Positions 2,571-49,141 of a stretch of 59,429 nt of DNA are shown in pieces. Numbering within the stretch: position 1 is the stretch's first letter; every line of letters begins with the position of its first letter. The DNA lies in NCBI GenBank assembly GCA_016932575.1, contig JAFGCO010000039.1, forward strand, positions 1 to 59,429. The letters run 5' to 3'. Under the pieces are notes generated by a model that ran no database searches, was not told where the DNA came from, and worked only from the letters and a program-made list of their open reading frames with translations. The DNA comes from a bacterium (GTDB lineage: Bacteria; Zhuqueibacterota; QNDG01; JAFGCO01). Both the position numbers and the translations under genes were made by a program.

Positions 2571-2975
2571 CTAAACGGCCCAATACTTCCTTAAAGCCAG
2601 ATCATTCAGAAAAACAATATCATATTGATCCATTGCTTCGAATCCTGCCCAGACATACTCACTGGATTCTTCGTTCAGCACAATTTCTCCCGTTACATGA
2701 CATTCAAAATAAAAGGTGATATAATGTTCCTGTAAAGATTCTGTGGGCAGATTATCCAAATAAAATAAAAAACGCTTCGAAATACATTTCAAAGCCGTCT
2801 CTTCCTCAATTTCTTTTTCGACTGTATCCTCAATTGTATCACCAAATTCAACTTTCCCGCCCGGCAAGCACCAGCTGCCGGAATCATGCGTACTGTGACT
2901 GCGTTTGAGCAGTAAAATTTCATTTTTTTGATTGCAGATAATGGCACGGACAACAGGGATTGGAAGTTGATACAT
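2571..2975 (-). CDS. Nudix hydrolase
   Basis: A 134-residue protein when started at the ATG at 2975, which has GGAG eight bases upstream; an ATG at 3041 would add 22 residues but lacks a ribosome binding site. The Nudix box is clear but slightly off consensus: GKVEFGD then KEIEEETAL, with Asp for the first Glu, Lys for Arg and Ala for the late Gly. The metal-binding Glu residues of REUxEE are kept. A YQLPIPVVRAII strand start and a GSWCLPGGK lead-in are typical of the family. It should hydrolyse a nucleoside diphosphate linked to another moiety; the substrate cannot be read from sequence. It stands alone between the surface protein and the ATPase gene. Confidence 0.85.
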   Translation of the reverse strand: MYQLPIPVVRAIICNQKNEILLLKRSHSTHDSGSWCLPGGKVEFGDTIEDTVEKEIEEETALKCISKRFLFYLDNLPTESLQEHYITFYFECHVTGEIVLNEESSEYVWAGFEAMDQYDIVFLNDLALRKYWAV

Positions 2976-3209
2976 CCAAAATTCTCCGGTTGATATACGG
3001 TTAAAAAAATTTTTAAACTTTAAATAATTTCGTCTGCACACATCGGGGAACTTGATTGTAATGACCGCATGGAATCATGAACAGCAGGTACACTTTATCA
3101 TTTTTTTAAAAACGTGTCAGGCAGCGGATTATCATCGTTCTTGATCCGGATGCTTTTATGGTCCTTTTATATCATGCATTGCCCATTTCATTGACCTCTC
3201 TCTGATGGC

Positions 3210-5831
3210 TTACTCATGACTGCCAGTGTTCAAAGTGAATACAATTTTATACTTTGCCGCTTTCAATATATCCACATACTTTCGAACAGAATTCCTGTCC
3301 TTCTCCTTATCCGCCTCGGAAAGTTGTGCATAGGCAATTAAACAATTATGCGTCTTTCTCGCATCGTTCCGCCTGCCTGGTGTCCAGCCGTTCCTCCGTT
3401 TTTGATCCATCCAGCCTTTGTGCTCGGCCTCGGCGAGCAATTCGATATTCTGTTCCATCAACGACTTTATTTCTTTTTCGGATTCTCTGACCGGATAAGA
3501 TTCCGGAACAACATAAAGACCGATCAGATCCAGAACCTGATGGATTCTTTCGGCAGCCGCCCGATTGTCTTCTTTGTAATCCTCAGACAAATTCTCATAA
3601 TCCACATCCATCTCCTGTTTCAGCCACTTTTCCTTTCTGCCAAGCTTCCGATAACAGGCATGCACAAACGGCGCCAGTATTTCTGCATGGGTTCTGAATT
3701 TTAAATCACGATTGATTATATCGACGAATTGATCATAGTCGACGTGCAATGAAATAATTTCCGGTGAAGGCAAGTCAGAACGACGAATAGCGACCTGTTC
3801 CGGTCGTTTCACCTGCGATATTATCTTATCAAGAGATCGGGATCCGTGCTTATATTTGTCGATCTCAATAAAAGCAGAAAGCATTCCATGGTCAATATTG
3901 AGATAATCAGTCTCTTTCAATCTCAGCATCGAGCGCATCAGCAATGCCCGTCTCACAGGAAAACAGATATCATTGTCATCCTCCTGCCATTTATTTATTT
4001 CAAGATCAAAATACTGTCTTCGATTCGGTCCCAGAACGTTCAGATAACCGCTCAAACGGCTGATAAAATCCGGTCCTTTTTTCAGCTGAAACTTTTGCCA
4101 TTGATCTGACTCTTCTTTCCGTGGCCCGAAGTTTTCCATGGTCAAACTCGTCCCACCTGCAAAGATGAAAATACATTTTCCAATCGGGTGGGTGATCTGA
4201 CCTTCCTGAAATTTGCCATCCTGCATGGGAGCGAGAAGATACTGCAGCCAGAAATATTCTTTTGAATCGAATTCATCCCAGAATACGATCGGAGTGGTGC
4301 CTTCCAGCACTTTATCACGAACCTGATGAAAAGCCCCGATTAAACAACCGGGATCATTGCTGAATTGAGAAAGGTTAAATTCCAGAATCGGGACATTTTT
4401 CCCAAAAATCCCTTCTGCAATCTGAACAATACCAAACGACTTACCGGAACCAGGAGGGCCAAACACAGCCATTGAAAGCGGCTTTTTGCCTTTGTCTTTT
4501 TTTTCATAGTCCAGAATGAGCTTGCTGACATTCCGCAAACTTTCAATCTCATTTCGGTCCACTGTGAGCAAATCCCCAAATCTGGCGTAAGGAATGTCGG
4601 CCAGGGCCTTCGGACCGATCAGTGCCACTCTTCTTCCCACACCGTAAAGAGGACGCGGATTCTTTTTGGCACCCTCTAAACACGCAGTCATTATCGTCCA
4701 GTTATTATGATTAGACTCTCCCGGATCTTCAGGCACCGGCAACGCAATGTTTGAATAGTGGTAATGCGGCTGATGAATATCCTGAACGACCCCGTTCATC
4801 GGGAAACCGGCAGGGCGTCCGTTTTGCTTGGTTTTCAGGTACCCGTGACCATTGATATGCATGGTTCGCATAGTGGACAATCCGGCCTGAATACCCTTAT
4901 TAAAATCCATTCTCTCACCGGATTGAATCAGACAGGCAACCATACCGGCCGTAAAACAGGTCATGTATCCCAATCCCATGCCGGAAAACTGGTCCAGCCA
5001 CTCCCCTTCCATGAAAGCCGGATCATAAAAAAGCCGGAACTTTTTATGGTTACCGTCTTTTTTTACAAGAAGGGCCCCTTCTGTACCAAGACGGACTATC
5101 AGGTATTTACTGGCAAGCAATTGATTGATGGCCGGATTAAAGAGAAGCTCACGGGTCAAATCCAGCGCGGTTCTTTCCCAGGATATCCCCCTGGATATTT
5201 TGACTTCTTCTTCCCGAATATCATCAATGGATACAATTGTAATTAAACGGTCTTTGTATTCAGTGCTGAGCAGTCTCCACAAATCCCCCTGACCAAGCGG
5301 TTTGGACATTTTCAGAACAATCCATTCAGGACTGTCCTTCTTTCTGTTTTGAAGCATACCGGGCCAGGCCTTAACCTCTGTGTTGTGCCTAAAACCCAGT
5401 CCGCTGTCATTAATAACCAAAATATCCGATGCCTGATTAGAGGCATTGCTGATATATGCCGAATAGGGGAAAAAGGGAGTATTTAAATGACCATAACCCA
5501 GTGTCCGGGCCATCCTCCATACAAAATGATCCGAACCGGCTTTCAAAGGGCATGGCTTCCAGAGTGCATACCTGTGTAAATTGGTATAGAGCTTCCCGAA
5601 TATGGTCTTATTGTATCCAAATTGAACCCGAAAAGGAACAGCCTTTTCATTGTGGTTCCTTTGGTGACTGATCACTTCGAGCATTTTATACAATAACCCG
5701 GCTCCGCCATTGGTCTTTTTAATATGGGTGCCGAGAGACTGGATGGAACTTGATGAGTTGCGCTCTCCCAGGTAAATATGATGATCGATTAACACATCAC
5801 CTGTGATCAAAATGACAGGCTTATTGTTCAT
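3210..5831 (-). CDS. Degenerate PfkB-like domain - AAA ATPase - RyR domain protein
   Basis: An 873-residue protein with GAGGGG ten bases before the ATG. Residues 1-350 resemble a PfkB/ribokinase fold: ITGDVLIDHH at the start, NGGAG at 41-45, VRLGTEGALLV at 246-256. The catalytic GAGD motif is GMGLG (284-288), so the kinase base Asp is absent and a ligand-sensing role is more likely. Residues 450-640 form a P-loop ATPase with Walker A GPPGSGKS (458-465) and Walker B PIVFWDEFD (514-522). Residues 797-860 match a RyR (ryanodine receptor repeat) domain: HKGWMDQKRRNGW, then GRRNDARKTHNCLIAYAQL. Prokaryotic RyR domains occur in predicted nucleotide-responsive conflict proteins. It is followed on the same strand by the AAA+ regulator and is divergent from the ubiquitin-like operon, so it may be its sensor. 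Confidence 0.8.
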   Translation of the reverse strand: MNNKPVILITGDVLIDHHIYLGERNSSSSIQSLGTHIKKTNGGAGLLYKMLEVISHQRNHNEKAVPFRVQFGYNKTIFGKLYTNLHRYALWKPCPLKAGSDHFVWRMARTLGYGHLNTPFFPYSAYISNASNQASDILVINDSGLGFRHNTEVKAWPGMLQNRKKDSPEWIVLKMSKPLGQGDLWRLLSTEYKDRLITIVSIDDIREEEVKISRGISWERTALDLTRELLFNPAINQLLASKYLIVRLGTEGALLVKKDGNHKKFRLFYDPAFMEGEWLDQFSGMGLGYMTCFTAGMVACLIQSGERMDFNKGIQAGLSTMRTMHINGHGYLKTKQNGRPAGFPMNGVVQDIHQPHYHYSNIALPVPEDPGESNHNNWTIMTACLEGAKKNPRPLYGVGRRVALIGPKALADIPYARFGDLLTVDRNEIESLRNVSKLILDYEKKDKGKKPLSMAVFGPPGSGKSFGIVQIAEGIFGKNVPILEFNLSQFSNDPGCLIGAFHQVRDKVLEGTTPIVFWDEFDSKEYFWLQYLLAPMQDGKFQEGQITHPIGKCIFIFAGGTSLTMENFGPRKEESDQWQKFQLKKGPDFISRLSGYLNVLGPNRRQYFDLEINKWQEDDNDICFPVRRALLMRSMLRLKETDYLNIDHGMLSAFIEIDKYKHGSRSLDKIISQVKRPEQVAIRRSDLPSPEIISLHVDYDQFVDIINRDLKFRTHAEILAPFVHACYRKLGRKEKWLKQEMDVDYENLSEDYKEDNRAAAERIHQVLDLIGLYVVPESYPVRESEKEIKSLMEQNIELLAEAEHKGWMDQKRRNGWTPGRRNDARKTHNCLIAYAQLSEADKEKDRNSVRKYVDILKAAKYKIVFTLNTGSHE

Positions 5832-16077: not shown

Positions 16078-16119
16078 CTGCTCAATGAATCTGTATTTTA
16101 CTAAGAAAGGAGTGATGAA

Positions 16120-16176: not shown

Positions 16177-16206
16177 CAATAAAACCAGAATATCGGAGGT
16201 AATCCC

Positions 16207-20977: not shown

Positions 20978-22072
20978 TTATGATGATTCTATTCGTTTGC
21001 TTAATTGATCTATCTTTGATTTTAATTCATCAATAACATAATCCCTTGATGTCTTATATTGTGCCGGTTGGTTTTTTAATAAAGATTGAAATTCCTCATC
21101 AAATTTTTCGATTTGATCCTGTATGATGGGTGCATATCTCGTAAAAATAGTCTGTTGATACCCAATGCCCGGCACATTGCTGACTGACTGAGCAAGGAAC
21201 CAGTTGCCGACGATTGTCAGATTCTCACCTCTTGACATTTTCTCATTGATAACAATCTCAATCTGTTCTGGTGGCATAGATACTACAAATTCCAATAAGG
21301 ATTTTAAACGTACATATTTGGCCTGTTCATCAAATTGTTGATACTCTATGGAAAGATCAATCATAAGGCTGCACCCTTTTTTTCGTGCATGTTTCTCCAT
21401 ACTTATCCGTTCCCTCTTCAGCTCCTTGGCGCGAAATTGAAAACCTTTAAAATCCTCTGGACTGTAACGCTTCTGCCACGATTCATCAATGAACGCTTTA
21501 TCAGGGATATGAAATGTGCTCAGCGCACCCTTTTGACGCACATGACCAAAACCGATTTTTCCCAATGATAAAACATTGTCTGAATATTCCACCATCATCT
21601 TCGTACGGTCCTCATGAAGTTCAGCACTTTCATACAAAGGTCTTGGTTTTTTTCGAGCATTCCTGATTAATTTATCGAAAGTATTGAATGACAGCTGCTC
21701 CTTCATACGATTTTCATTATTAGACCATTGAATGGCCTGTAGATCCTGCAGCATCTGTCCTGGTATTTGGCCAAGCGTTATGGGAAGTATCGGAATTTTA
21801 AGAGCCATTGCATATCCAATTTCCTGATGTACCCACCCTCTTTTACTCGAACGCTTTGTAATTACAGGGACAAAAACATGAGAGTGAGCAATAAAATTTT
21901 TAATCTGATCCGGAAACCCTTGTCCTCCGGCAATATTCTCATCGAATAGAGGCTGAAGTTTGTTTTCTTTTAAAATATTGACAATCTTCTTAACCAGCTT
22001 GAAATCCTTGCTGGAATGACTGATGAAAACCCTGTATTGATTCTTATGTTTTTTCTTCAATACCCTCTTCAT
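20978..22072 (-). CDS. TIR domain protein with unknown C-terminal domain
   Basis: A 364-residue protein. The TIR domain covers residues 11-140: YRVFISHSSKDF (13-24), a DENIAGG loop (45-51), and GWVHQEIGYAM where Glu84 is the likely NADase catalytic residue. Residues 150-364 are an unrecognised, strand- and helix-mixed domain that may sense a trigger or bring copies together. TIR domains of this type in bacteria cleave NAD or make cyclic ADP-ribose signals in phage defence. It shares a strand with the phosphatase downstream and lies beside a RAYT repeat cassette. Confidence 0.85.
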   Translation of the reverse strand: MKRVLKKKHKNQYRVFISHSSKDFKLVKKIVNILKENKLQPLFDENIAGGQGFPDQIKNFIAHSHVFVPVITKRSSKRGWVHQEIGYAMALKIPILPITLGQIPGQMLQDLQAIQWSNNENRMKEQLSFNTFDKLIRNARKKPRPLYESAELHEDRTKMMVEYSDNVLSLGKIGFGHVRQKGALSTFHIPDKAFIDESWQKRYSPEDFKGFQFRAKELKRERISMEKHARKKGCSLMIDLSIEYQQFDEQAKYVRLKSLLEFVVSMPPEQIEIVINEKMSRGENLTIVGNWFLAQSVSNVPGIGYQQTIFTRYAPIIQDQIEKFDEEFQSLLKNQPAQYKTSRDYVIDELKSKIDQLSKRIESS

Positions 22073-22813: not shown

Positions 22814-22851
22814 CTTTCTCCTTTTTATTTGAAGTTCGTTCGTAGTTCCGA

Positions 22852-22946: not shown

Positions 22947-25316
22947 TCATGTCAAATCGGGTTTGATCGGATATGGCGTTACCAAATCATGATGTTGCTC
23001 TGTTTTTGAGATAACGGATTTCCAAAACATGCCCTGCGGCGGGATTCTTTTCCTTCCGAGCACAACAAGCTCGAGAGGAACCAGGGCAAATTCAGTCAGC
23101 CACTGGCTGATCATGCAATCGGTGTACCCGGCCATTGCCGCATCAACGGCCAATAAACCCAGACGTTGACCGGTAATGATATCCGAAGTACTGGGCTCAA
23201 GAGCACGGACAAGATGACGTGGTTCACTGCATACAACTCGTAGTTTTGACCAATCTGGTTCATCCCATCCAAAAGCATCCTCTTCTGTTAAAAGGTTTTC
23301 TTGACTCAATAAGATTGGTATCGCTTCTGCCATAATTTTCAGTCCTAGTTTGCGTATTGTATCACTTGTTTGCCCCTCTAATCTTTGCCCCTCCTGACGC
23401 CGCTTTATAAAAACGCGAATTTCATCTTTATCATTCTGTGTCAGTTCAAACTGACCAGCAATTTTTACATATGCATCTCTAAGATCCGGATAGTTGTTTA
23501 AAAATTCATTCCGGGGATCTGACAATCCAAGACATTCAAGAGCATCCTGTGGCACTGCATTCTCAGCCATAACTACCAAACCATGTGGAAACATACTATC
23601 AATCGGGGCAGTCGGGGAATGCTCCTGAAAGTCAGGATTCGCCGTTTCCCACAGACGTTTCTTCAGATAACGCGCGACACCTGCTGCACTGAATTCGATC
23701 TCAGGGATCAGAGCCAGCATGGCATGTCCTGCTGCAGAAGCCAGAACCGCATGACTCACAACAAACCCTGAGTCTGAACCAAAGAGCTGAACAATGCCAA
23801 GGCGCGGATTTGATCTGACTTCCGTATGCAATGTCTCAACGATCTTACGAGATTCATCAACTGCCGAAAGGAAACCAAATGACTGCCATACCCAGAGAAT
23901 GTCATTATCCATAGTTTTTGGAATAGTAACAACAGCCATTTTCCGATTTATTTGACGTTTTCGATTGGTAAAATGCCATAAGGCATGCGCAGCCTTCATA
24001 CTGCCATCACCACCAATGATATACAAAATATCGATCATTCGTCCTCTTTGAGACAATGCATTTGATATGTTTTCTAAACGATTATATCGGGTTTTCAATC
24101 CAAGCAGATCCTCGTCTCGGGAGGTGCCCAACATGGATCCCCCCCGCGTAGCAAATTCGATAGTATTCTGGGGCCTGAGTGGAACCAAATGTGACGAAAT
24201 CGCAGAATTGGATTCACCAATAGCTAAAAATCCGTTTTTTACACCAAAAATTCGCAGTTCATACCTGTGGCCCCGGCCTTCAGCATCCCGCTTATAAATA
24301 TAGTGACGTTGTACCAGAGCGTCAATTACAGCATTGATACCAGGTGCAATTCCTCCTGCCACCAAAATCGCTACATTAATCTGTCTGGGAGCACCACGTT
24401 GTGGAAAAGACAATTTAGGACGTGGTCCTGCTTCCGGAAAAATCGGTGGAGAATTGATCGGCTCAAGTTCCATCAAAGCGGCCGCACGAACCAATGCTTC
24501 ACGGCCTTCTTGCCCGGTTCGAAAGTCTCCTGCAATAGCAGTTTTAAGATAATTATCGCGTAAGGGAGGATATCGATGAACCGTAGGCCATTGAGCAGGC
24601 ACACCATATTCTAACCACTCTTCGATTTTTTCTTTCGGCCAACGTTCACATGCATCGCAAAACCGTTCGCGTGTATCAGGAGAAACCGATTCACCTTCAC
24701 CATTGTTTTCAATTTCCCGAAGCTGTTTGACTGAATAGAATTCAATGATCCGTTTTTCATAGTCAAATAATTGTGGAACACTGGGAAGCCCGTTTAACAA
24801 TTTTTTATCATCCCAGTCTACCCATGTTTCTGTAGCAAAGTCACTCCGCCACCAGTTTTTAATTGTTCCCATTATCTCCATAGCACATTTGACTGATCCG
24901 GGTGGTACCATATTCGTAAAATTATCCCAAATCATATGACGATTACCAGCATGCATGACGATAAAGTTTGGAAAGTCTTCTGGCTTTTTTTGTGAACCAA
25001 TACCAACAAGCAAAATTGCTTTATTATCAGCAGAATTAATACTACTCGCAAGCTCAATGCATTGATAGTCTCCAAAACGTTTTCCGACAAAGAAAATGAC
25101 TCCATCTGCCTGACCTGATTCATGCATTATTACCTCTAGAAAGTTTTTTTTAGGACTGGGGTGCTCTTCAAATAAAAACATATTTTCACGACCCCAATAC
25201 AACTCAAGAATATTACATGTCTCATAAACAAACTTTTTATCATCGACACAGTATGAAATAAAAAAATAAGGCCTTGTTTTCTTTTTGCTATTTCTTTGAA
25301 CAGATTCCTTTTCCAT
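22947..25316 (-). CDS. TIR-like domain fused to phosphofructokinase (fusion 1)
   Basis: A 789-residue protein with AAAAAGGA before the ATG. Residues 15-150 form a TIR-like domain (RPYFFISYCVDD at 15-26; Glu88 in YQCIELA is a candidate catalytic residue). A linker with a DACERWPKEKIEEWL helix follows. Residues 313-770 form a PFK-A fold: GGIAPGINA (321-329), GGSMLGTSR (392-400), GGDGSM (435-440, ATP type), PKTMDND (466-472) and AGYTDCMISQWL near the end. The usual MGR that binds fructose 6-phosphate is FGSD (512-515), so the sugar-binding Arg is missing. The kinase part may sense or modify a different nucleotide or sugar. A second, independent copy of this rare fusion lies at 47006-49141. Confidence 0.85.
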   Translation of the reverse strand: MEKESVQRNSKKKTRPYFFISYCVDDKKFVYETCNILELYWGRENMFLFEEHPSPKKNFLEVIMHESGQADGVIFFVGKRFGDYQCIELASSINSADNKAILLVGIGSQKKPEDFPNFIVMHAGNRHMIWDNFTNMVPPGSVKCAMEIMGTIKNWWRSDFATETWVDWDDKKLLNGLPSVPQLFDYEKRIIEFYSVKQLREIENNGEGESVSPDTRERFCDACERWPKEKIEEWLEYGVPAQWPTVHRYPPLRDNYLKTAIAGDFRTGQEGREALVRAAALMELEPINSPPIFPEAGPRPKLSFPQRGAPRQINVAILVAGGIAPGINAVIDALVQRHYIYKRDAEGRGHRYELRIFGVKNGFLAIGESNSAISSHLVPLRPQNTIEFATRGGSMLGTSRDEDLLGLKTRYNRLENISNALSQRGRMIDILYIIGGDGSMKAAHALWHFTNRKRQINRKMAVVTIPKTMDNDILWVWQSFGFLSAVDESRKIVETLHTEVRSNPRLGIVQLFGSDSGFVVSHAVLASAAGHAMLALIPEIEFSAAGVARYLKKRLWETANPDFQEHSPTAPIDSMFPHGLVVMAENAVPQDALECLGLSDPRNEFLNNYPDLRDAYVKIAGQFELTQNDKDEIRVFIKRRQEGQRLEGQTSDTIRKLGLKIMAEAIPILLSQENLLTEEDAFGWDEPDWSKLRVVCSEPRHLVRALEPSTSDIITGQRLGLLAVDAAMAGYTDCMISQWLTEFALVPLELVVLGRKRIPPQGMFWKSVISKTEQHHDLVTPYPIKPDLT

Positions 25317-27625: not shown

Positions 27626-29182
27626 TCAAACGGGAAACTGATTGTAATAATCATCAAAAGCTTCAGATCGTTCAAAATCATACCGGGCTCTTTCAAGTTC
27701 ATCCAATAAATAATTGGCAAATCCTGTAAAGTAGAAATCCTTTTTTGTTTGTGGCAATGATAAACCGGCATCTGATATCACCCGTTTGCACAGTTCCTTC
27801 ATCTTTTCATGGTTTTCAAGCTGCCGGAAAATTCTGGCCTGTATAATCAGAGTTTCGCGTGTGACGGTTTCAGGATCGGTATTGAGTTTTTCAAAAATTT
27901 GTATTGCCTGATCAAATTCCCGGAATCGAAACAGCTGTTTCCCTTTGAAAGCCAATAGCTCCGGATTTGACTCATAACAACCTTTGGAGATCAGCCGTTG
28001 GAATGCCTCGTCCTTTTTATCCAGATAAAGCAGGCAATAATAGTAATAGATCTCTGCATCTTCGTCCATGGTATCACGCATATTATCCAATTGATTAAAT
28101 TTTTGCTCAGCTTCGCGGTACTGTTCGTCCAAAAATAGAATGACCGCCTGAAGCTTTAAGACCGTGTACCAGTCATGCCCGGGAATTATTTGAAGTGTAT
28201 ATTGCAGTATTTCAGTTTTCAGGGTAACCGGCACAGGATTATCCGCCTTAATCAGGATAGTTGCATAATTGATTTTCTCATCTGTATTGTCTGTTTTACA
28301 CTGTTCCAATGCCATTCTGTAATGATCAATGGCCTTTTCATAATCGCCCCGATCCGAATAGACACCGCCAAGACCGCCATGCACATATCGATGGCCTCTT
28401 CTTATGCGGCCGGCCTGTTTAAATGTTTGTTCTGCCTGGTCCCAATCACCGAGTATTTGTTCACAAACACCTTTGACAATATAAGGATAGAATAATCTGT
28501 TTTTCCCTCCGGCGCTTTCGGGAATTTTATAGGCACAGGAATCCAAAAAATAGCGAATAAGAAAATAAGCCTCCTCCCAGGCCTCTTGCTGAAACTTCGT
28601 ATTAAAGAGGCTGAGAATGATCATCAGCTCAACATGCGCTGCATTTGAATGCGTAAATTGAAAAGACTCTTCTTTAAACTTTTTCCAGAAAGGCATCCGC
28701 TCATGCGTCTCAATAATGGGTTTATATTTTTTATGAATATTTCTTTCATACACCTTCTCACAAATACGGCCAATTGCTTCTTCATATCCTTTTTCATCGA
28801 TAAAATTCATATGAAGATATATTTTATTTTCAAAAGACTTAAAAGGGCCCTCAAGACATCTCGGACATTTATTTTTAATCATGAGCGGGATGACATTTTT
28901 TGAAGACTGACCGGCGTTTTTCAGAATATATTCGACTTCCAGCCTTGTAAATCGTCCGCTATCCTTATCGACACTATCCCGACTGATCAGGGGAATAAAA
29001 TATTTGGAATTATCGATCTGCTTAAATAAATAGTCCGGTAAATTTTCGCCTAACTCAATCTGTTCTATATCATTTGAATAATCCCAGAATGTAATTCCCT
29101 GGTATTGTAAGCTGGCCATCAGCTGCCTGACGTATTTTAAATCCTTTGAAGAAAAACTGATAAAAACATCATATTTTTTCAT
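27626..29182 (-). CDS. TIR-TPR protein, copy 1
   Basis: A 518-residue protein. The TIR domain (residues 3-150) has YDVFISFSSKDL (4-15) and GRFTRLEVEYIL, where Glu82 or Glu84 is the likely catalytic residue. Residues 180-500 are tetratricopeptide repeats, for example GDYEKAIDHYRMALEQC. It ends in a block (FANYLLDELERARYDFERSE) closely matched in the TIR-TPR protein at 32966-34486, so the two arose by duplication. The TPR part probably binds a trigger or partner and controls TIR NAD cleavage. The next gene on the strand encodes an exported protein, paralogous to the one beside copy 2. Confidence 0.87.
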   Translation of the reverse strand: MKKYDVFISFSSKDLKYVRQLMASLQYQGITFWDYSNDIEQIELGENLPDYLFKQIDNSKYFIPLISRDSVDKDSGRFTRLEVEYILKNAGQSSKNVIPLMIKNKCPRCLEGPFKSFENKIYLHMNFIDEKGYEEAIGRICEKVYERNIHKKYKPIIETHERMPFWKKFKEESFQFTHSNAAHVELMIILSLFNTKFQQEAWEEAYFLIRYFLDSCAYKIPESAGGKNRLFYPYIVKGVCEQILGDWDQAEQTFKQAGRIRRGHRYVHGGLGGVYSDRGDYEKAIDHYRMALEQCKTDNTDEKINYATILIKADNPVPVTLKTEILQYTLQIIPGHDWYTVLKLQAVILFLDEQYREAEQKFNQLDNMRDTMDEDAEIYYYYCLLYLDKKDEAFQRLISKGCYESNPELLAFKGKQLFRFREFDQAIQIFEKLNTDPETVTRETLIIQARIFRQLENHEKMKELCKRVISDAGLSLPQTKKDFYFTGFANYLLDELERARYDFERSEAFDDYYNQFPV

Positions 29183-30067: not shown

Positions 30068-32737
30068 TTATCTGCCCACCTTTTTCTCTTTTATTTTCTC
30101 CAAAATTTTGATCCAGTTATTGATCATAACTCGATCGTATTCTTTTACCATGTCATCCAACTTATCCCACTCCACAAGAAAAGGATTTGTTTTTTTGAGA
30201 TCATCTCTTTTCTCCCCATATTTCCATCCTTCAGCCAACCTTTCAATCCACCATCGAGCATGCTCACATTCTGCAAGTTCTTCTTTCTTATTCTCAAATT
30301 CATCCCAATCTATATCCAGCTTCCTCTCGTCTTTAATAACACTCCCGACACGTTTTAGTGTCGGTTCAATAAACCGCACCTGTTCTGCATTGGATATTTT
30401 TAAATCTTCAAGTTCTTTTGTTTTGTCAGCGATTAACTTTTCCCAAGGTTTCATTGTCGAATCGCTGGAAAGGCCATTATCATATTTATACTTTCGATAA
30501 CATTCATGTACATGTTCCTGAACCTCATCGATTATTTCATCAGATATGACCTGATTTTGATACTGATTGACAAATGCCCAGACAAGAATTTCTTTCTCGG
30601 GTATGACAACAATATGTTGATGCCCCATCCAATCCGGATCAGATAAAATACCCGTTACGGCACGACCGCTGTTTTCGATCAGTCCAACCTGTACTCCCAT
30701 TGCCAAGGCAATTCGATATTCCAGATCGGAAAAACGGCCTCCATTGATACCCAAAACATTAACACGATCAAAATTAACATCATTAAGAACCAGATCGATC
30801 CAGTATTGAATCATATCGAGGATTGAAAACGTTTTTTGATTAATACATATGGGAATATAATTCTGATCTTTCAGCTTTTCATCAATTCCTTCAGGATAAT
30901 AGCCCAGCAGATAGACGGGTTCTTTCTTTTTTAACCGATTATTATTGATTGCTCCGACAATTGCTCCAACCTGGCCTGGAATTCCCTGTCTTGTCCCACC
31001 TGAAATAATAATACCCTGATAATTTTCCAATGCATTGTTTAGCAATTTACGATAAGCAGCTGCATTTTCCAAAAATTCAGCGCCACCGGCTACAATAAGT
31101 ACCGTGGATCTCTTCAGATATTCCGGATCTTTCTTTAAGAACTCCAAATCGCCCAATGCCTCTGAAGTATGAAGGTTCTTTTTTATTTCAGCACGAATTT
31201 GATAATTATCTTTGGCCTCAATATGGTTATATTTTCCCAAGAGCAATAGAAATCGAATGACCTGATAATCAATTTCTTCAATATCTTCATTGTTAATTCG
31301 GTCAAGGGAAGCCAATTGATCATCAAAAATTTCAATGGGGAATATCGGATTTTCATTATTACAGAAATCAATGGCTTTTGCATAGGCATTCAATGATTGA
31401 TCAATATCACCGATAATCAAAAACAGTTTCCCGATGGTCCAGTAACAATCCGGCATCTCTAATTGATATTGTATATGCTCCTGACATTTTTCAATTGCAT
31501 CCCTGACTGCCGGTTTTAAAATACTGCCCTGTTTTTTATCATGAGCAATTTTGCATTCAAGGTAATTGGTTAAATAATAAGGATTTGCAGGTACGAGATT
31601 ATAAGCAAGATCAAAACATTTCAAAGCCATTTCAATATCATTTTTCCGAATATAACACTCTCCCAGCAAATATAGCGCCCTTGCCCTTCTGTGTTTTTGC
31701 AACTCATTCTCTTCCTTATCTTTATCTTTTATTTTATAATCATACGCGCTGATTCTCTTAATCTTTTTTTCAGGCCGGGCAAGTTTTTCTAAAAGCTTTA
31801 TTCCTTCATTAAATTTTTCTTCTGTTCCATCAATACCCAGCATGCATTGAACGTAACCGAGCAGCATATTGATTTTTTGTGATTCGCCCTTATAATCATT
31901 CAAAAGCTTTTCAACCTCATGCCAATCTCTTTTAATACAATGCAATTTTGTCAACTCAAATGCATATTTCATTGCCGACCTTTTCCACTTCTTAAAATCA
32001 GGGCCGTTACCACGACATTTATCCTTTGCATTCTGGTACAATGTTTCAAACCTTGACCGAGTTTTCTCGAATCTTTCCTTATTTAAGACTGCCGCATAAT
32101 TGGAAGCAAACGCATCCAGGGTTTGTGCAAAACTTAAAAACGACTTATCCGCTTCCTCTAAGATCGCTGCAAGACGATAGGATTCCCTCTCCCAGTAAGC
32201 TGGGACTTTAATTGCCGCTTTATATATCCTGTCGTGACTGATATCTGCCCAGGCATGCTGAAGGAACGTCTTGATCTGGACTTCGGCCTTTTTTTTAATC
32301 AAATCGTTATTAAATTTTACACCCATAATTTTTCTTTTTGGCGATACGATCAGATGAACCGAAACATATCCAAATTCTGAAGTCTTCATCACATCTCGTT
32401 TATCAATGCAATTTTTCTCATCAATTTGAAATTCTCTCCTGATTCTTTGACATATCAAATCCACTTCACTCTGAAAATGTACAATAATCCGTCCACCGCA
32501 CAGGTCTGTAATTTCTTCTTCTGGCTTCTCATATTTTTGTTTTCTCATGACTTTCTCTGCAAATCCGTCAACACTCTTGATCCTGGTCTGAACAATGCCC
32601 AGCGGTGCATATTCATCTTTAATTTTATTCAGAATGCGTTCAAGCTTTTTTCTGAACTCTTCATAATGTCCCCTAACCTTCAAATAATCATCAATATGCT
32701 TTTGAAGATCCCCTTTATTAATTTCAATTTCACTCAT
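30068..32737 (-). CDS. RelA/SpoT synthetase-like - TPR - SLOG - RyR protein
   Basis: An 889-residue protein with GGAGGGTG before the ATG. Residues 1-200 resemble a (p)ppGpp synthetase: KSVDGFAEKVMRK, DLCGGRIIV (78-86), EFGYVSVH (121-128) and AEVQIKTFLQHAW (151-163), keeping the catalytic Asp and Glu. Residues 230-530 are TPR-like helices. Residues 544-725 match a SLOG (Rossmann, nucleotide-binding) domain: VLIVAGGAEF, IIISGGTRQGIPG and GGRFSDLEYRIALAMG. Residues 823-882 are a RyR domain: CEHARWWIERLAEGWKYG, then KKTNPFLVEW. It likely senses a nucleotide and makes or answers with another alarm nucleotide. The same RyR module ends the protein at 3210-5831. Confidence 0.85.
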   Translation of the reverse strand: MSEIEINKGDLQKHIDDYLKVRGHYEEFRKKLERILNKIKDEYAPLGIVQTRIKSVDGFAEKVMRKQKYEKPEEEITDLCGGRIIVHFQSEVDLICQRIRREFQIDEKNCIDKRDVMKTSEFGYVSVHLIVSPKRKIMGVKFNNDLIKKKAEVQIKTFLQHAWADISHDRIYKAAIKVPAYWERESYRLAAILEEADKSFLSFAQTLDAFASNYAAVLNKERFEKTRSRFETLYQNAKDKCRGNGPDFKKWKRSAMKYAFELTKLHCIKRDWHEVEKLLNDYKGESQKINMLLGYVQCMLGIDGTEEKFNEGIKLLEKLARPEKKIKRISAYDYKIKDKDKEENELQKHRRARALYLLGECYIRKNDIEMALKCFDLAYNLVPANPYYLTNYLECKIAHDKKQGSILKPAVRDAIEKCQEHIQYQLEMPDCYWTIGKLFLIIGDIDQSLNAYAKAIDFCNNENPIFPIEIFDDQLASLDRINNEDIEEIDYQVIRFLLLLGKYNHIEAKDNYQIRAEIKKNLHTSEALGDLEFLKKDPEYLKRSTVLIVAGGAEFLENAAAYRKLLNNALENYQGIIISGGTRQGIPGQVGAIVGAINNNRLKKKEPVYLLGYYPEGIDEKLKDQNYIPICINQKTFSILDMIQYWIDLVLNDVNFDRVNVLGINGGRFSDLEYRIALAMGVQVGLIENSGRAVTGILSDPDWMGHQHIVVIPEKEILVWAFVNQYQNQVISDEIIDEVQEHVHECYRKYKYDNGLSSDSTMKPWEKLIADKTKELEDLKISNAEQVRFIEPTLKRVGSVIKDERKLDIDWDEFENKKEELAECEHARWWIERLAEGWKYGEKRDDLKKTNPFLVEWDKLDDMVKEYDRVMINNWIKILEKIKEKKVGR

Positions 32738-32965: not shown

Positions 32966-34486
32966 TTAATCAAGCTGATTATAATATTGATCACAAAAAT
33001 CTTCAGACCTTTCATAATCATACTTTGCACGTTCATGATTCTCCAATAAAAAATTTGCATATCCATCATAAAAAAAATCTTCTTTTGTTTTCGGGATTGG
33101 AAAATAATCCCGGTTTAATACTTCTTCACATACTCTTCTCATTTTTAATTGATCATAATATTTCATGATTCTTGCATATTCGATTGTAAATTGCCGGGAG
33201 GGGGGCCGATAATGTAATAATTTCTCTTCATAGACCTTTATCGCTTTCTGATCCATACCCAGATAAAAATAAAAAAGAGCCAGATAATGATCCAACAGAG
33301 ATTCAGTAAAATGATCTGATTCTTCCTCCAGGATTGCCAGAGCATCTTCCTGATTTTCCATCTCTTTCAAAACCAGATGGATATAAATCACAGTTGTTAC
33401 ATTATATGTTTTCTGTTGACGCATTGCTGTTAAAAAATTCAGCGCTTTATCATAATCCTTTTTTTTATAAAAAGCGATGCTTTTCATATTCAAATAATTG
33501 ATCCTTTCAGATTCAGACAGTGCTGAAACATCAAAAGCATCCAGGAATGAAAAATCTGTTATCTCCTGACCGGACTGAATCAAAGCGCCAAGAATATTGA
33601 ACCATATTTCAAGATTGTGCTCCGGAGGACACATCTTTAAAGCCTGATTGAACGCTTTTAGCGCTTCTTCATACCGTTTCTGCCGGAAATAAACCTGACC
33701 CAGTCCGCCATAACTGTTTTCATCGCATAAAGGATGATGGACGGCATCAAGAAAAGCCTGCTCTGCTTCAGCAAACTCTCCCAAATGAAGATGACACACT
33801 CCCTTCACAATGAGAGGATAATAGGGCTTGAGTCCGGGTATATTATATCCGCAGTACAACAGGAAATAGGTAATATGTTTCTCTGCTGCAATATAATCAT
33901 ATTCTGCATAATGATGTGAAAAATCATGAATAATCAGCATCAGCTCCTGGTATACGGCATTGGGAAGATTCCACCCTTTGATTTCTTCATCAAACCGGCC
34001 GGAAAAGGGCAATCGGGAATGGGCTATAAAAAGAGGGATATAGGGTACGCTTAAGTGTTTTGCAATTTTCGCAACAGCCTCTTCAAAGCACTTCGGATTT
34101 TCTGTATCCACTTCCAGATACATCGTATCCCGAAGAGATTCATAGCCGTCTGCCCATTTACCAGGCTTATGATTAAGCAGAAGCAGCGGCAAAATCCGTC
34201 CCTGCCTCTGCCAACCCTTGGAAAGCACATACTCCACTTCGAGAGTTGTATACCGGCCGATTTCAGGATCCATACTGTATTTGCTGAGAACAGTGATAAA
34301 AAAATCGGATTGATCAATCTGCTCCCTCAGTACCGTGGGTATATGGCCCCCCAAAGGAATCTCTTCACCTCTGTGCGAATAATCCCAGATATCGATATTC
34401 TGGCTTTTCAGCCGATAGAATATTTTTCGCACATACGGTTTATCCTTCGAAGAGAAACTGATAAATACTTTCGGAGATGAACTCAT
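32966..34486 (-). CDS. TIR-TPR protein, copy 2
   Basis: A 506-residue protein. The TIR domain (5-150) has KVFISFSSKDK (6-16), IDIWDYSHRG and GRYTTLEVEYVL with Glu83 or Glu85 as the catalytic candidate. TPR repeats fill residues 190-490 (for example KRYEEALKAFNQALKMC). It ends with DFFYDGYANFLLENHERAKY, nearly the same as copy 1 at 27626-29182. It lies 31 bp downstream of a secreted-protein gene, so gene order is reversed relative to copy 1. A cytoplasmic TIR effector and an exported partner appear to have been duplicated as a unit. Confidence 0.87.
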   Translation of the reverse strand: MSSSPKVFISFSSKDKPYVRKIFYRLKSQNIDIWDYSHRGEEIPLGGHIPTVLREQIDQSDFFITVLSKYSMDPEIGRYTTLEVEYVLSKGWQRQGRILPLLLLNHKPGKWADGYESLRDTMYLEVDTENPKCFEEAVAKIAKHLSVPYIPLFIAHSRLPFSGRFDEEIKGWNLPNAVYQELMLIIHDFSHHYAEYDYIAAEKHITYFLLYCGYNIPGLKPYYPLIVKGVCHLHLGEFAEAEQAFLDAVHHPLCDENSYGGLGQVYFRQKRYEEALKAFNQALKMCPPEHNLEIWFNILGALIQSGQEITDFSFLDAFDVSALSESERINYLNMKSIAFYKKKDYDKALNFLTAMRQQKTYNVTTVIYIHLVLKEMENQEDALAILEEESDHFTESLLDHYLALFYFYLGMDQKAIKVYEEKLLHYRPPSRQFTIEYARIMKYYDQLKMRRVCEEVLNRDYFPIPKTKEDFFYDGYANFLLENHERAKYDYERSEDFCDQYYNQLD

Positions 34487-36168: not shown

Positions 36169-36948
36169 TTAATCCTGGATTTTTCTTCTGTCCATGGATT
36201 GAATGGAGTATTGCTCACTGATTTTCCGGGCGATTCTCTCGACGAGTAATGGGATATTCCCCCTCTCCTCTTCTGTGGCGTCCTTCCAAACAGCTTCTGA
36301 GATCACCTGCAGCACATTTCTGGGCTCATGCTCTGTGCCCTTATCATCAAAATACCGGTATTTCAGTGCTTCATCTGCCAGTGTTTCACTCACCAGACGT
36401 GCCGGATTAAACTGTCCCAGGCTGACAGCCCGGGTATAGCATAACTGAAATCCCACGCGCAACCGCTGTTGTGTTAAGTCAGAGGAACGCCTCTCTTTGG
36501 ATTTATTTCTCCGATCCTGGTCTTTTGGCATATTCTTCTTTTTTTCATACGGCAGGAATGTCTTACCGAACACGGCCATGACCTTTTCAAATCCGGTTTT
36601 CATGCAAGATCTGAAATCAATGGTCTGATAGGCTTCCATACCGTCAACAAAGCGGGACAGATCTGTATCATCCAGAATCAATGGTAAAACTGCGCCTTTC
36701 GGTTTTAAAGTCTGAAAACGAACAAATTCCTTAATCACCCATTTGGAGTCTGCTGAATGGCTTGAAACCACGACAATTAAAGATTCAGCCTTTTCCAGAG
36801 CCCTGTCAATTTCATCTCTGTACTGGTGGCTGCCTTTAATATCATCCGTGCTGCACCAGGTTTTAACTCCATGATACTCCAGAAGCGCGACCAGCAGATT
36901 TACAAAATACCGATCATCACTTGAATGTGAAATAAAAACAGGCTGCAT
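36169..36948 (-). CDS. TIR domain protein with basic linker and C-terminal domain
   Basis: A 259-residue protein. The TIR domain (1-135) starts with PVFISHSSDDRYF and has SADSKWVIKEFVRF, with Trp70 and Glu74 at the NADase positions. A highly charged linker (KKKNMPKDQDRRNKSKERR, 136-154) leads to an 85-residue domain with VGFQLCYTRAVSLG that I do not recognise. It is the upstream end of the leftward TIR island. The 334-bp gap between it and the next gene (35835-36168) holds nothing I recognise. Confidence 0.83.
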   Translation of the reverse strand: MQPVFISHSSDDRYFVNLLVALLEYHGVKTWCSTDDIKGSHQYRDEIDRALEKAESLIVVVSSHSADSKWVIKEFVRFQTLKPKGAVLPLILDDTDLSRFVDGMEAYQTIDFRSCMKTGFEKVMAVFGKTFLPYEKKKNMPKDQDRRNKSKERRSSDLTQQRLRVGFQLCYTRAVSLGQFNPARLVSETLADEALKYRYFDDKGTEHEPRNVLQVISEAVWKDATEEERGNIPLLVERIARKISEQYSIQSMDRRKIQD

Positions 36949-41347: not shown

Positions 41348-41418
41348 GCCTTTTGATTATTGAATACTCCCGGGCCTTTCTTGGAAAAAATATTATTTTT
41401 TGGAGTAACCAGAACAAC

Positions 41419-42981: not shown

Positions 42982-43105
42982 TATGTTTTCTGCAGGAGAT
43001 AAAAAATTGTTGAATTTAGGTTGTTACTTTATAAAAACGGTTTTGAAAAACAAGCCGTTTCGATGTCGAATGTATCATGATTTTTAAGCGAAATGGGAGG
43101 ACATT

Positions 43106-43789: not shown

Positions 43790-43804
43790 AGGAGGATTTC
43801 AGCC

Positions 43805-44845: not shown

Positions 44846-44877
44846 TACAATCAACTCATTAAAAGAGGGTTATGATT

Positions 44878-45867: not shown

Positions 45868-45909
45868 ACTCAGCACAATAAAATCACCGAAAGGTGGAAC
45901 TGAAGACAT

Positions 45910-46920
45910 ATGAAATCCAGAATCCTTCAAATACTGATCCTGCCGCTGATGGCTGCCCGTCTTATATCCGGATCCAACGAGTTGTCAAAAGAAGTCGATC
46001 TGCGGGGAGAATGGCGTTTCGAAATCGGCAACCTGAAACTGTATTCAAATCCGGATTTCGATGATTCGAACTGGGAAACCATCGATGTGCCCGGCAATTG
46101 GGAACGTCAGGGATTCCCTGGTTATGACGGGTATGCCTGGTATCGTACCCGTTTTAAAATATCCTCCCGGCTTTCAGAATCCGCGCTTTATCTTGAATTG
46201 GGCTATGTGGATGATGTGGATCGTGTATATATCAATGGCCATTTTCTAAATGGTTCAGGCAGCTTGCCGCCGAATTTTCTGACTGCCTGGGACCGTAGCC
46301 GGCTGTATACGATTCCCAATTCATTTCTCAACTTCCATGGTGATAACTGTTTGGCAGTACAGGTTTATGACAATGAAGCCGAAGGCGGCATCCGGAAAGG
46401 CTCTGTGGGTATCTATTCAAAAAGGCAGCCTTATCACCTGTCCTTTGATCTATCCGGCCTGTGGAAATTCATGCCAGGAGACAATATGGATTGGAATCGG
46501 CCGGATTATGTCGACGAGGCATGGCATACCATTGAAGTTCCTGGCAAATGGGAATATCATGGTTTCAAAGACCTGGATGGATTTGCCTGGTATCGCAAGG
46601 CATTTGTACTGCCAAATTTTATGAAAGACGACCGCTGGATTCTTGTGCTGGGGCGAATCGACGACATCGATGAGGTATTTTTCAACGGAACACGAATCGG
46701 CCAAACCGGCCAGTTTCCTGACCGAACGGATCTTTTCATAGAAACGGGATATGGAAAACTGCGGCTCTACTCTATTCCCCGGTCCTTATTACGCGCCAAC
46801 CGAATCAATGTGATTGCCGTGCGTGTTTATGACAAAATCGGCGAGGGCGGCATATATGAAGGCCCTGTCGGCCTGATCAGCCGAAAAACATACCTGAGAA
46901 AAAGAAGATATTTTCATTAA
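45910..46920 (+). CDS. Secreted tandem GH2-type jelly-roll protein, paralogue 4
   Basis: A 336-residue protein, last of the series, with AAAGGTGG before the ATG. A signal peptide spans about 1-20. The two jelly-roll domains show DLRGEWRFEIGN, WETIDVPGNWERQG, VDDVDRVYING, NCLAVQVYDNEAEGGI and then WHTIEVPGKWEYHG, IDDIDEVFFNG and NVIAVRVYDKIGEGGIYEG. In the first domain ALAV-type NVIAVRVYD is changed to NCLAVQVYD. The gene converges on the TIR-phosphofructokinase gene with an 85-bp gap. Confidence 0.82.
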   Translation: MKSRILQILILPLMAARLISGSNELSKEVDLRGEWRFEIGNLKLYSNPDFDDSNWETIDVPGNWERQGFPGYDGYAWYRTRFKISSRLSESALYLELGYVDDVDRVYINGHFLNGSGSLPPNFLTAWDRSRLYTIPNSFLNFHGDNCLAVQVYDNEAEGGIRKGSVGIYSKRQPYHLSFDLSGLWKFMPGDNMDWNRPDYVDEAWHTIEVPGKWEYHGFKDLDGFAWYRKAFVLPNFMKDDRWILVLGRIDDIDEVFFNGTRIGQTGQFPDRTDLFIETGYGKLRLYSIPRSLLRANRINVIAVRVYDKIGEGGIYEGPVGLISRKTYLRKRRYFH

Positions 46921-47005: not shown

Positions 47006-49141
47006 TTATATCAAATCCGCCGGCTGGCCCGTACTTGCAATGGCAGACCGGTAAAATATCCCGTTTTCAGGCACACGTTTCCGTCCCAGGATCACGAGGC
47101 GAAGGGGCACCATGACATATTCGGTTAACCATTGACTGATCATGAAATCCGTATAACCGGCCATGGCCCCGTCCACGGACAGAGTGCCCAGCCGCTGTCC
47201 GAAAAGGATATCCGAACTCGTGGGATCCACGGCTCGCAGCAAATGCCGTGGTTCGTTGGTGAATATACGAAAGTTGTTCCAATAATTTCTCGGTCTGAAT
47301 TGTCTGTCTTCTTTAAATCGCCGCTTCAGGACTTTCGTGAATATTCGCAAACCCGCAGACCGGAGCTCATCCGGCGTTTGTCCGGCTGTTCTGAGCTGTT
47401 CCGCATAATCCCGGATGTGTTGTTTTTCTTCGTCACTTAATGATTTGATTTTTTCTTTGGGAATTTTTTTATCGATGCCTAAATAGCTTCGAATATTTGA
47501 CACACTGTTATTTTTAATACCGATCGGCGGGGAATCCCAATACTCGTGTTTTAAATAGTCATTCACCGCCTCAACTTCTTCTTTAGGAAAACAAAAAGAC
47601 TCATCCTCGATATACCATCTGGCATCCAGGGGAATTGCCGTTTCTGCCATCAGGATCAATCCGTGAGACCGATACGGCGGAATGCTATTGTTGTAATTAT
47701 CCATAAGCCGCTTGCGCACATATTTCCAAACCGAACGCATTGTAAAAGGAACTTCGGGGATTAAAAAAAGATCGCATGCCCCGCTTCCGCTGGCCAGGGA
47801 AGCATGCGTCACCACATGGCCTGAATCGGATCCGAACAACTGTAAAACGCAAAGCCGTGGATTGGACAGAGCTTCCACATGCAGCTGATGAATGATTCCA
47901 TTGGCTTTCTCCACCGCAGATTCGAAACCAAATGTCTGCCATCCCCACAGCACATCATTGTCCATGGTTTTCGGGATAGCAACAATCGTAACATCTTTTT
48001 TTCTTGCCTGAATCCGTTTATGCAGAACGTGAGCGGCCCGCATGCTGCCGTCACCGCCAAGAATATAGAGAATTTTAATTTTCTCAACCAAAATCCTATT
48101 AACCGCATCTTCCAGTGTTTCATCGCGAACCGATGGATCCGGATCATTAAATTCCGACACCCGGGATGTTCCTAAAATAGACCCCCCTTTATTAAACTGC
48201 TCTTCCAGAAATTTTTCATTGAGCGTCTGACTTGGCTCATCTGAAAGCAATCCGTCAAAACCATCAAAGAATCCGCAAACCCTGACATTGTATTTACCAT
48301 ACTCTGCATACATCTTATGCCGTTTGTAAATGGCTGCGATAACAGCATTCGTGCCCGGGGCGATTCCGCCTGAAACAAGAATTCCGATATTTAATCGGGC
48401 GCCTTCTTCAATTCTTACAATATCTTTCCGCGGGCCTGCCAGGGGAAATACCATGCCTTTGTTTTTTAATTCTTCAGGCTGAAAATCGGAAATCGTGGAT
48501 ACATAAACCACCGGATTGTCTGTTCTGTCATCCCGGAACCGTCCTGCATGTTCCTCCGGGATTGGATTTGGGTGCAGATATTCATCTTCTTTTCTGTTGA
48601 CTGCAGGCCACTTTTCCGGACACCCCTGAGCGATCAATTGAATATTTATTTTATCTTTGACAAAATGATCAATAATCGCCTTTTCATAATCAAAAGGATA
48701 GCCCTCCGGGATATCGTCTTCCACGATCCATGGATTCCCCAGCAGGCGGACACATTCTTTTGCGCATTGATAAGCATCTGTATCTGTAAGCGGCAATTTA
48801 TTTTGTGAAAATTCAATTATTTGATGAGCATCTTCCAATAAGTCTGAATCATCAGGTATTTTCGGCAGTTTCACGATGATAATGCCCTTTTTGTTATTTT
48901 TGGCTTCGTCCAATTCCTGTTTCTGGACCTTGCCCACATGTTCACCGTGAAAAAACAAAATCGTGCCGGCAGAGGATAATTCTTCCTGTATCACGCTCCG
49001 CCAGCCGGGAACTTCTCTTCGGATCGGGGCATCTCTGTGAAAAAAAATGGACAGGCCCTGTTTTCGCAAATAGTAACATACCCTGACAATGAAGGCTTCG
49101 TTTTCTTCAAAATGGTATGAAATAAACAGCTTCGTTTCCAT
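47006..49141 (-). CDS. TIR-like domain fused to phosphofructokinase (fusion 2)
   Basis: A 711-residue protein with AAAGGGAG before the ATG and a TATAAT box further up (49160-49165). Residues 1-140 are TIR-like (TKLFISYHFEENEAF; Glu76 or Glu79 as catalytic candidate). A linker with CPEKWPAVNR, also seen in fusion 1, follows. Residues 250-700 form the PFK fold: GGIAPGTNA (258-266), KGGSILGTSR, GGDGSM (362-367), PKTMDND (390-396), FGSDSG (436-441, replacing MGRxxG) and MAGYTDFMISQWL. The same loss of the sugar-binding Arg in both copies argues for a changed ligand, not decay. Gene order gives no partner. Confidence 0.85.
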   Translation of the reverse strand: METKLFISYHFEENEAFIVRVCYYLRKQGLSIFFHRDAPIRREVPGWRSVIQEELSSAGTILFFHGEHVGKVQKQELDEAKNNKKGIIIVKLPKIPDDSDLLEDAHQIIEFSQNKLPLTDTDAYQCAKECVRLLGNPWIVEDDIPEGYPFDYEKAIIDHFVKDKINIQLIAQGCPEKWPAVNRKEDEYLHPNPIPEEHAGRFRDDRTDNPVVYVSTISDFQPEELKNKGMVFPLAGPRKDIVRIEEGARLNIGILVSGGIAPGTNAVIAAIYKRHKMYAEYGKYNVRVCGFFDGFDGLLSDEPSQTLNEKFLEEQFNKGGSILGTSRVSEFNDPDPSVRDETLEDAVNRILVEKIKILYILGGDGSMRAAHVLHKRIQARKKDVTIVAIPKTMDNDVLWGWQTFGFESAVEKANGIIHQLHVEALSNPRLCVLQLFGSDSGHVVTHASLASGSGACDLFLIPEVPFTMRSVWKYVRKRLMDNYNNSIPPYRSHGLILMAETAIPLDARWYIEDESFCFPKEEVEAVNDYLKHEYWDSPPIGIKNNSVSNIRSYLGIDKKIPKEKIKSLSDEEKQHIRDYAEQLRTAGQTPDELRSAGLRIFTKVLKRRFKEDRQFRPRNYWNNFRIFTNEPRHLLRAVDPTSSDILFGQRLGTLSVDGAMAGYTDFMISQWLTEYVMVPLRLVILGRKRVPENGIFYRSAIASTGQPADLI

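What the first reader, a model, noticed from the sequence alone, without database searches (positions are those of the whole stretch)
47006..49141. Second, diverged TIR-phosphofructokinase fusion with the same FGSDSG change
The copy 22 kb away is diverged in the TIR part but has the identical PFK changes and a shared WP-V-R linker. Conservation of the altered site in two diverged copies argues for a selected new function.
Basis: partly seen in the sequence, partly recalled or inferred. Interest (0 to 1): 0.7.

Follow-up and report, generated by a model that had tools for sequence, protein, structure and literature searches.

The report
TIR immune domain fused to phosphofructokinase
Two distantly related genes join an NAD-destroying immune-type domain (TIR) to a glycolysis enzyme (phosphofructokinase) with one fixed active-site change, which suggests an immune or stress switch that reads the cell's sugar and energy state.

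Summary
The ORF at 47006-49141(-), 711 aa, is a TIR-phosphofructokinase (PFK) fusion. A second, 789 aa, lies at 22947-25316(-), and both carry FGSDSG. I found six more in five other genomes (records titled Verrucomicrobia, Chloroflexota, Acidobacteria, Thermoplasmata; one from the window's phylum). All eight have Ser where PFKs have the Arg of MGR (E. coli R171). Nine other ligand or catalytic residues, and the TIR catalytic Glu, are invariant in all eight.

The two window copies are not a local duplication (AU p=0.00018) and show no gene conversion (fourfold sites agree 26/113). They belong to different, widely scattered subclades, which suggests transfer.

"New function" is only partly supported. 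R171S in E. coli PfkA is reported to leave KM unchanged and lower kcat by about 75%. I favour a ligand-binding, attenuated PFK module that gates TIR NADase activity.

Context supports an immune role: six of the genome's seven TIR hits lie in this window, and 3 of 8 fusions have a RelA/SpoT-RyR gene within 5 kb; a phage RyR protein cleaves cyclic ADP-ribose. No TIR-PFK fusion turned up in the open-access searches made. Function is inferred, not shown.

The parts
47006..49141 (-). TIR-PFK fusion gene B (711 aa), the finding
48722..49141 (-). TIR domain of B (residues 1-140); AlphaFold2 model mean pLDDT 85.4, pTM 0.83
48914..48916 (-). Glu76, invariant in 8 of 8, aligned with catalytic Glu74 of Cat1
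48392..48721 (-). linker and PFK N-terminal extension of B (residues 141-250), with WP-V-R and AGPR
47009..48391 (-). PFK domain of B (residues 251-711); closest solved fold T. brucei PFK
47954..47974 (-). PKTMDND motif of B (T125, D127, D129 equivalents retained)
47819..47836 (-). FGSDSG of B (Ser438 = E. coli R171)
22947..25316 (-). TIR-PFK fusion gene A (789 aa), the distant partner copy
23766..23783 (-). FGSDSG of A
30068..32737 (-). RelA_SpoT-TPR-RyR protein (889 aa) between A and B; homologues lie beside TIR-PFK genes in G046 and G085
2571..3041 (-). NUDIX hydrolase gene, 45% identical to the NUDIX gene beside the G046 fusion
3210..5831 (-). AAA-RyR protein next to the NUDIX gene
20978..22072 (-). 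TIR gene (TIR_2 5.8e-18, ThsB_TIR 1e-5) of the same TIR cluster
27626..29182 (-). TIR-TPR gene of the same TIR cluster
32966..34486 (-). TIR-TPR gene, 32% identical to 27626-29182
36169..36948 (-). TIR gene of the same TIR cluster

Best explanation
TIR-PFK is a metabolite-gated NADase. The PFK part folds as an ATP-type phosphofructokinase of the trypanosome/PRK06830 branch and forms oligomers (inferred). It binds nucleotide and a sugar phosphate (inferred from invariant ligand residues), but the R171S change slows phosphoryl transfer, so it works as a sensor or a slow timer, not as a glycolytic enzyme. When ligand occupancy shifts, as when infection or stress disturbs glycolysis and ATP, the PFK oligomer changes state and brings the N-terminal TIR domains together. 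They then cleave NAD+ through the invariant Glu, either depleting it or making (cyclic) ADP-ribose (inferred). In some loci that signal may be read by a neighbouring RelA/SpoT-RyR protein (inferred). Shown here: the fusion, the family, the fixed residue pattern, the phylogeny, the TIR-rich surroundings and the RyR proximity. Not shown: any activity.
For: TIR: Pfam TIR_2 over its cut-off in 6 of 8 members; a TIR-only profile's hits in the PDB copy are led by 9m0n, a TPR protein (7.1e-7), and Cat1 (9.1e-6), followed by named TIR, TLR, MyD88 and ThsB chains; Glu76 8/8 matches Cat1 E74, which lines that NADase site and was among the residues tested by alanine substitution (PMC12162218 passages). 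PFK: nine ligand or catalytic residues other than D103 (R72, T125, D127, D129, R162, E222, R243, H249, R252) are all 8/8 invariant; the chance given 25% invariant PFK columns is 3.4e-6, though these residues were picked as known functional sites, which are conserved in PFKs generally. G104 8/8; D103 is Glu in 2/8. R171S keeps KM in E. coli PfkA (PMC11808435). The PFK part is far more conserved than the TIR part (25% against 3.6% invariant columns), as expected if it reads a fixed metabolite. Genomes keep another PFK: 5 of 6 have PF00365 hits besides the fusion. Context: 6 of 7 TIR_2 hits of the genome lie in this 59 kb (binomial 4e-11); 3 of 8 fusions have a RyR gene within 5 kb, expected 0.04. 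Distribution: 1 of 347, 1 of 337, 1 of 350, 1 of 292 and 2 of 82 genomes in five phylum samples, as for a horizontally moved accessory gene.
Against: No assay. No PADLOC model matches the window fusions; of the other six only L007 gives weak hits, to SAVED-TIR and Csx1/Csm6. No full-length copy in the viral, phage or plasmid searches. Four loci (L026-L029) showed no RyR/NUDIX neighbour and three of the six genomes have no RyR domain at all, so any relay is not universal. The RyR test was made after the neighbours had been seen, and immune genes cluster anyway. A slow but real kinase is equally compatible with the retained D127.
Confidence: 0.42

Rival explanations
1. The PFK domain is a working, slowed sugar-phosphate kinase acting as an output: infection or stress switches it on, and TIR and PFK together drain NAD+, ATP and hexose phosphate.
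For: D127, T125, R72 and all F6P-contact residues are invariant in 8/8; R171S in E. coli keeps about a quarter of kcat.
Against: R171 is fixed as Ser in 8/8 while 118 of 127 distinct PFK segments in the loci scanned carry Arg (the sample was chosen by similarity to the fusions), which argues against selection for fast catalysis; D103 is Glu in 2/8.
Confidence: 0.2
2. The PFK domain is only an oligomerisation scaffold (pseudo-enzyme) for TIR assembly, and another signal or a phage protein is sensed.
For: TIR enzymes such as Cat1 need assembly to form the active site (PMC12162218); classic bacterial PFKs are tetramers (PMC12203962).
Against: A bare scaffold would not keep nine ligand residues in 8/8.
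Confidence: 0.15
3. The PFK domain acts on the TIR's own product or on a nucleotide (ADP-ribose, cADPR, NAD+), like a NAD-kinase relative.
For: Weak NAD_kinase and DAGK_cat profile echoes (0.015 and 0.08, one fusion each).
Against: F6P-phosphate contacts R162, R243, H249 and R252 are all kept, which a nucleotide acceptor would not require; the echoes are below the cut-offs and DAGK_cat also appears in the TIR-less relatives.
Confidence: 0.07
4. A housekeeping PFK variant that gained a TIR for ordinary metabolic control, with no role in immunity.
For: No phage challenge data; several neighbours of L028 and L029 look metabolic (GcvP-type, anthranilate synthase-type, nucleotidyl transferase); the L027 genome shows only this one PF00365 hit.
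Against: Five of six genomes have another PFK; very rare, scattered distribution; location inside a TIR cluster.
Confidence: 0.15
5. The two window copies are a recent duplication homogenised by gene conversion.
For: Same contig, 21.7 kb apart.
Against: Fourfold sites agree 26/113, longest exact match 12 nt; {A,B} clade rejected, AU p=0.00018; B is sister to L026 with 100/100 support.
Confidence: 0.01

Closest known systems
Cat1 (CRISPR-associated TIR, PDB 9mud)
   Same: TIR NADase with the aligned catalytic Glu (E74 to E76), N-terminal TIR fused to a ligand-binding oligomerising module
   Different: Cat1's sensor is a CARF domain for cA4; here it is a PFK fold and Pfam reported no CARF domain
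Thoeris ThsB (TIR signal generator) with ThsA (SIR2-SLOG)
   Same: TIR with NAD+ as likely substrate; in G046 a SLOG/LSDAT-RyR protein is the neighbouring large gene
   Different: No SIR2-SLOG ThsA found among the genes scanned; the TIR is fused to PFK; the candidate receiver carries RelA/SpoT
Trypanosoma brucei PFK / PRK06830-type ATP-PFK
   Same: Best sequence and fold match: E 1.9e-53 with the family profile, Z 34 over 398 residues at 2.3 A
   Different: R171 is Ser, the R162-type Arg is kept where the aligned T. brucei chain has none, LW-WQ and SQWLTE signatures, TIR at the N terminus; NCBIfam score 219 against cut-off 400
Standalone PFKs of L030 (Bacillota MAG) and L031 (record titled Akkermansia muciniphila)
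   Same: Nearest non-TIR relatives in the tree, share LFG, PRH and S-WL-EYVLVPL signatures
   Different: No TIR reported; R171 position is Arg (L030) or Ala (L031)

Membership tests
TIR NADases | TIR sequence profile or fold | tested here: met
   TIR_2 reported in 8/8 at E up to 0.1, over the cut-off in 6/8; profile hits to solved TIRs; model Z 13.7 to plant TIR and 13.1 to SARM1, but DNPH1 14.8, so fold alone does not decide
TIR NADases | catalytic glutamate | tested here: met
   E76 invariant 8/8, aligned with Cat1 E74
TIR NADases | cleaves NAD+ | not testable with these tools
   needs protein
ATP-dependent 6-phosphofructokinase | PFK-A fold and general base D127 | tested here: met
   PF00365 in 8/8 over the cut-off, D127 8/8, fold of B
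ATP-dependent 6-phosphofructokinase | F6P-phosphate contacts R162, R243, H249, R252 | tested here: met
   8/8 each (numbering); residue roles other than R162 are recalled
ATP-dependent 6-phosphofructokinase | Arg of the MGR motif (R171) | tested here: not met
   Ser 8/8
ATP-dependent 6-phosphofructokinase | NCBIfam equivalog score | tested here: not met
   best PRK06830, 219 bits against cut-off 400 for both window copies
ATP-dependent 6-phosphofructokinase | F6P kinase activity | not testable with these tools
   needs protein
Thoeris | ThsA partner (SIR2-SLOG or macro/TM effector) | tested here: inconclusive
   none among the flank genes scanned, but not all flank genes were scanned
Thoeris | ThsB model match of the TIR protein | tested here: not met
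   no ThsB model of PADLOC for 8/8 fusions

The most novel reading that the evidence does not exclude
TIR-PFK senses glycolytic or energy collapse and makes an ADP-ribose-type signal that a RelA/SpoT-SLOG-RyR protein reads, so that NAD+ signalling is converted into an alarmone response, with the NUDIX neighbour clearing the signal: a Thoeris-like relay with an alarmone synthetase as effector and central metabolism as trigger.
Probability: 0.17. Interest if true: 0.87.

Novelty: new variant of a known kind. Interest (0 to 1): 0.62.

Why it matters
TIR proteins are known with many sensor domains, but the searches made here showed no report of one built on a glycolytic enzyme. If the PFK part gates the TIR, it would show a bacterial immune or stress enzyme reading central metabolism directly, and it comes with sharp single-residue tests (S438R, E76A, R429A).

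Tried and rejected
Recent duplication and gene conversion: rejected. dN/dS of the site: not attempted because fourfold sites are saturated. Serine codon switching as a selection test: uninformative, all eight fusions use TCN codons. Phage, plasmid or viral origin: no full-length copy in viral contigs, 72,556 plasmid records or 50,697 phage records; only partial PFK matches. A conserved partner in all loci: none; all-against-all comparison of ORFs of the window, L025 and L026-L029 found no family shared by all beyond TIR-PFK itself (L110 was not in it). Further TIR-PFK candidates in G085 (C184, 669-aa frame) and G082 (C747, 888-aa frame) proved to be other PFKs without the fusion. More TIR-less relatives of L030 and L031: none beyond the query genome itself among 101 and 57 genomes at E 1e-60. 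My first idea that the changed residue is R162 was wrong: one search shows it is R171. In the whole-model comparison the N-terminal domain matches a deoxyribosyltransferase and DNPH1; in the TIR-only model DNPH1 leads plant TIRs by about 1 Z, and I keep TIR because of the sequence profiles.

The script stopped at L070 and was replaced, where 1 of 127 segments (L112) could not be scored; L110 is not among those 127. In the tree 14 of 16 outgroup loci that I named gave a row (L034 and L037 did not pass the script's filter), and the outgroups were picked by hand. The NUDIX, RyR and RelA profiles were built from 2, 4 and 3 sequences. The 17 control regions were arbitrary contigs with fewer bases (165,747) than the 23 RyR regions (309,580). 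Rows L026 and L028 of the alignments start one residue after the start Met.

Full report
Observation. The ORF at 47006-49141(-) is an intact 711-aa gene with a TIR domain and a PFK domain. The partner is 22947-25316(-), 789 aa, whose TIR is weak in Pfam (0.0028). The pair are 34% identical by BLAST. The FGSDSG stretch, PKTMDND and WP-V-R are in both.

Which residue changed. Aligning the eight-member profile to E. coli PFK (1pfk) puts Ser438 on R171 (the Arg of MGR) and Phe436 on M169; R162, which binds the F6P phosphate across the subunit interface (PMC12203962 passages), is retained as Arg429 (residue numbers counted by me from the alignment). Phe at the M169 place is common (40 of 127 segments read FGR), so the Arg-to-Ser change is the distinctive one: of 127 distinct PFK segments in the loci scanned, 118 have Arg, 7 Ser (all fusions), 1 Ala (L031), 1 not scored. 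The eighth fusion, L110, also has Ser. Nine other ligand or catalytic residues are 8/8; D103 is Glu in 2/8. Roles of these residues apart from R162 and D127 are recalled. R171S in E. coli PfkA is reported to give a negligible change in KM and nearly 75% lower kcat (Hellinga and Evans 1987, as stated in PMC11808435, passages; the original was not read).

Family. Six more members came from a genome-contig scan (L026-L029) and genome searches (L007 in G046; L110 in G085). They sit in records titled Verrucomicrobia, Thermoplasmata, Chloroflexota and Acidobacteria and in one further genome of the window's phylum. Prevalence at the thresholds used was 2 of 82, 1 of 347, 1 of 337, 1 of 350 and 1 of 292; each count includes the genome already known. 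All four named records are metagenome-assembled, so mis-binning is possible for single loci.

History. In a 24-row tree of PFK domains the eight fusions are one group (100/100), B is sister to L026 (100/100), and A groups with L110, L027 and L028 (96/99). Holding A and B together is rejected (AU p=0.00018), and so is the group of three same-phylum members. Fourfold sites shared by A and B agree 26/113 and the longest exact match is 12 nt. The copies are therefore old relatives that met in one genome, probably by separate transfers. G085 likewise has two fusions that do not group closely.

Structure. AlphaFold2 on an alignment of nine gave B mean pLDDT 77.9, pTM 0.72. The PFK part matches T. 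brucei PFK at Z 34.0, 2.3 A over 398 residues. The TIR alone gave pLDDT 85.4 and matches DNPH1 (Z 14.8), plant TIR (13.7) and SARM1 TIR (13.1). Sequence profiles favour TIR: best hits 9m0n and Cat1. Glu76 (8/8) aligns with Cat1 E74, which lines the NADase site (PMC12162218 passages).

Surroundings. Of seven TIR_2 hits in the 4.41 Mb genome, six lie in this contig (binomial 4e-11, which ignores that related immune genes tend to cluster). The window also carries an AAA, JAB-like and E1-like block. A RelA_SpoT-TPR-RyR gene lies at 30068-32737, 4.75 kb from A. Its homologue with a SLOG/LSDAT domain lies 536 bp from the G046 fusion, divergent (a 91-aa frame between them is unassigned), with a NUDIX gene overlapping it, and a RelA_SpoT-RyR gene lies 1.1 kb from the L110 fusion with one nucleotidyl-transferase gene between. 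Thus 3 of 8 fusions have a RyR gene within 5 kb, expected 0.04, P about 1.4e-5 under random placement (post hoc, and clustering of immune genes is not modelled). RyR domains occur in 17 of 82 genomes of the phylum and in 3 of the 6 fusion genomes. In 23 other RyR regions the PFK profile found nothing, a TIR was found in 4, and a NUDIX gene was found in all 8 regions with a RelA-RyR gene; 17 control regions gave none of the five profiles. The RelA part keeps EIQIRT or EVQIKT. A phage RyR-domain protein cleaves 2'cADPR and 3'cADPR (PMC13232231 passages). ThsA SIR2-SLOG effectors are activated by cADPR isomers (PMC11204291, abstract start in the listing).

Mechanism. The best reading is a TIR NADase gated by a ligand-binding, slowed PFK oligomer. 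The retained ligand residues, the binding-neutral R171S, the separate PFK in five of six genomes and the much higher conservation of the PFK part (25% against 3.6% invariant columns) support sensing of a fixed metabolite. Activity, ligand and oligomer state are inferred.

Literature. The open-access searches listed no paper on a TIR-PFK fusion; one search found 26 papers holding both 'TIR domain' and 'phosphofructokinase', 25 listed, and none of the titles concerns a fusion. A term search inside the TIR survey PMC7075850 and inside PMC9503650 and PMC7159879 found no PFK. Burroughs et al. 2015 (NAR), from recall the likeliest place for the RyR/SLOG context, is not held, so novelty of that context is not claimed.

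Noticed in passing
L123, L127, L130, L132, L133, L134, L136, L141; also L025 and L110: RelA_SpoT-RyR genes are accompanied by a NUDIX gene in 8 of 8 flank regions that hold one and beside two of the TIR-PFK fusions; this looks like a conserved nucleotide-signalling pair. In the window the NUDIX gene (2571) is far from the RelA-RyR gene (30068).
   Followed up: partly
window 8456-20271: Block with two ThiF/E1-like genes, a JAB-like gene (weak, 0.0021), two AAA ATPases (one with proteasomal-ATPase OB matches) and unassigned ORFs: a possible ubiquitin-like conflict system.
   Followed up: no
window 25398-27566 and 34518-35885, 27626-29182 and 32966-34486: Two pairs of paralogues (a FlgD_ig-tailed protein with its relative, and TIR-TPR) sit as neighbours twice, as if a two-gene unit had been duplicated (36% and 32% identity).
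   Followed up: no
window 22229-22885: IS200-like Y1 transposase-type gene (E 0.00068, below Pfam's cut-off) directly downstream of TIR-PFK A.
   Followed up: no
L027 10191-10715: An 8xMP membrane-protein gene (PF24838, 4.2e-41) follows the Thermoplasmata TIR-PFK by about 40 bp on the same strand; a possible partner.
   Followed up: no
L027 8001-10151 (genome G083): The TIR-PFK is the only PF00365 hit of this 5.2 Mb genome.
   Followed up: no
L031 8001-9278: TIR-less PFK with Ala at the R171 position in a record titled Akkermansia muciniphila; no other strong match in 57 related genomes, its own included.
   Followed up: partly
window 40241-46920: Four paralogues (45-50% identical); the three scanned have only beta-galactosidase-type sugar-binding domains and no matched catalytic domain, with a response regulator gene beside them.
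   Followed up: no
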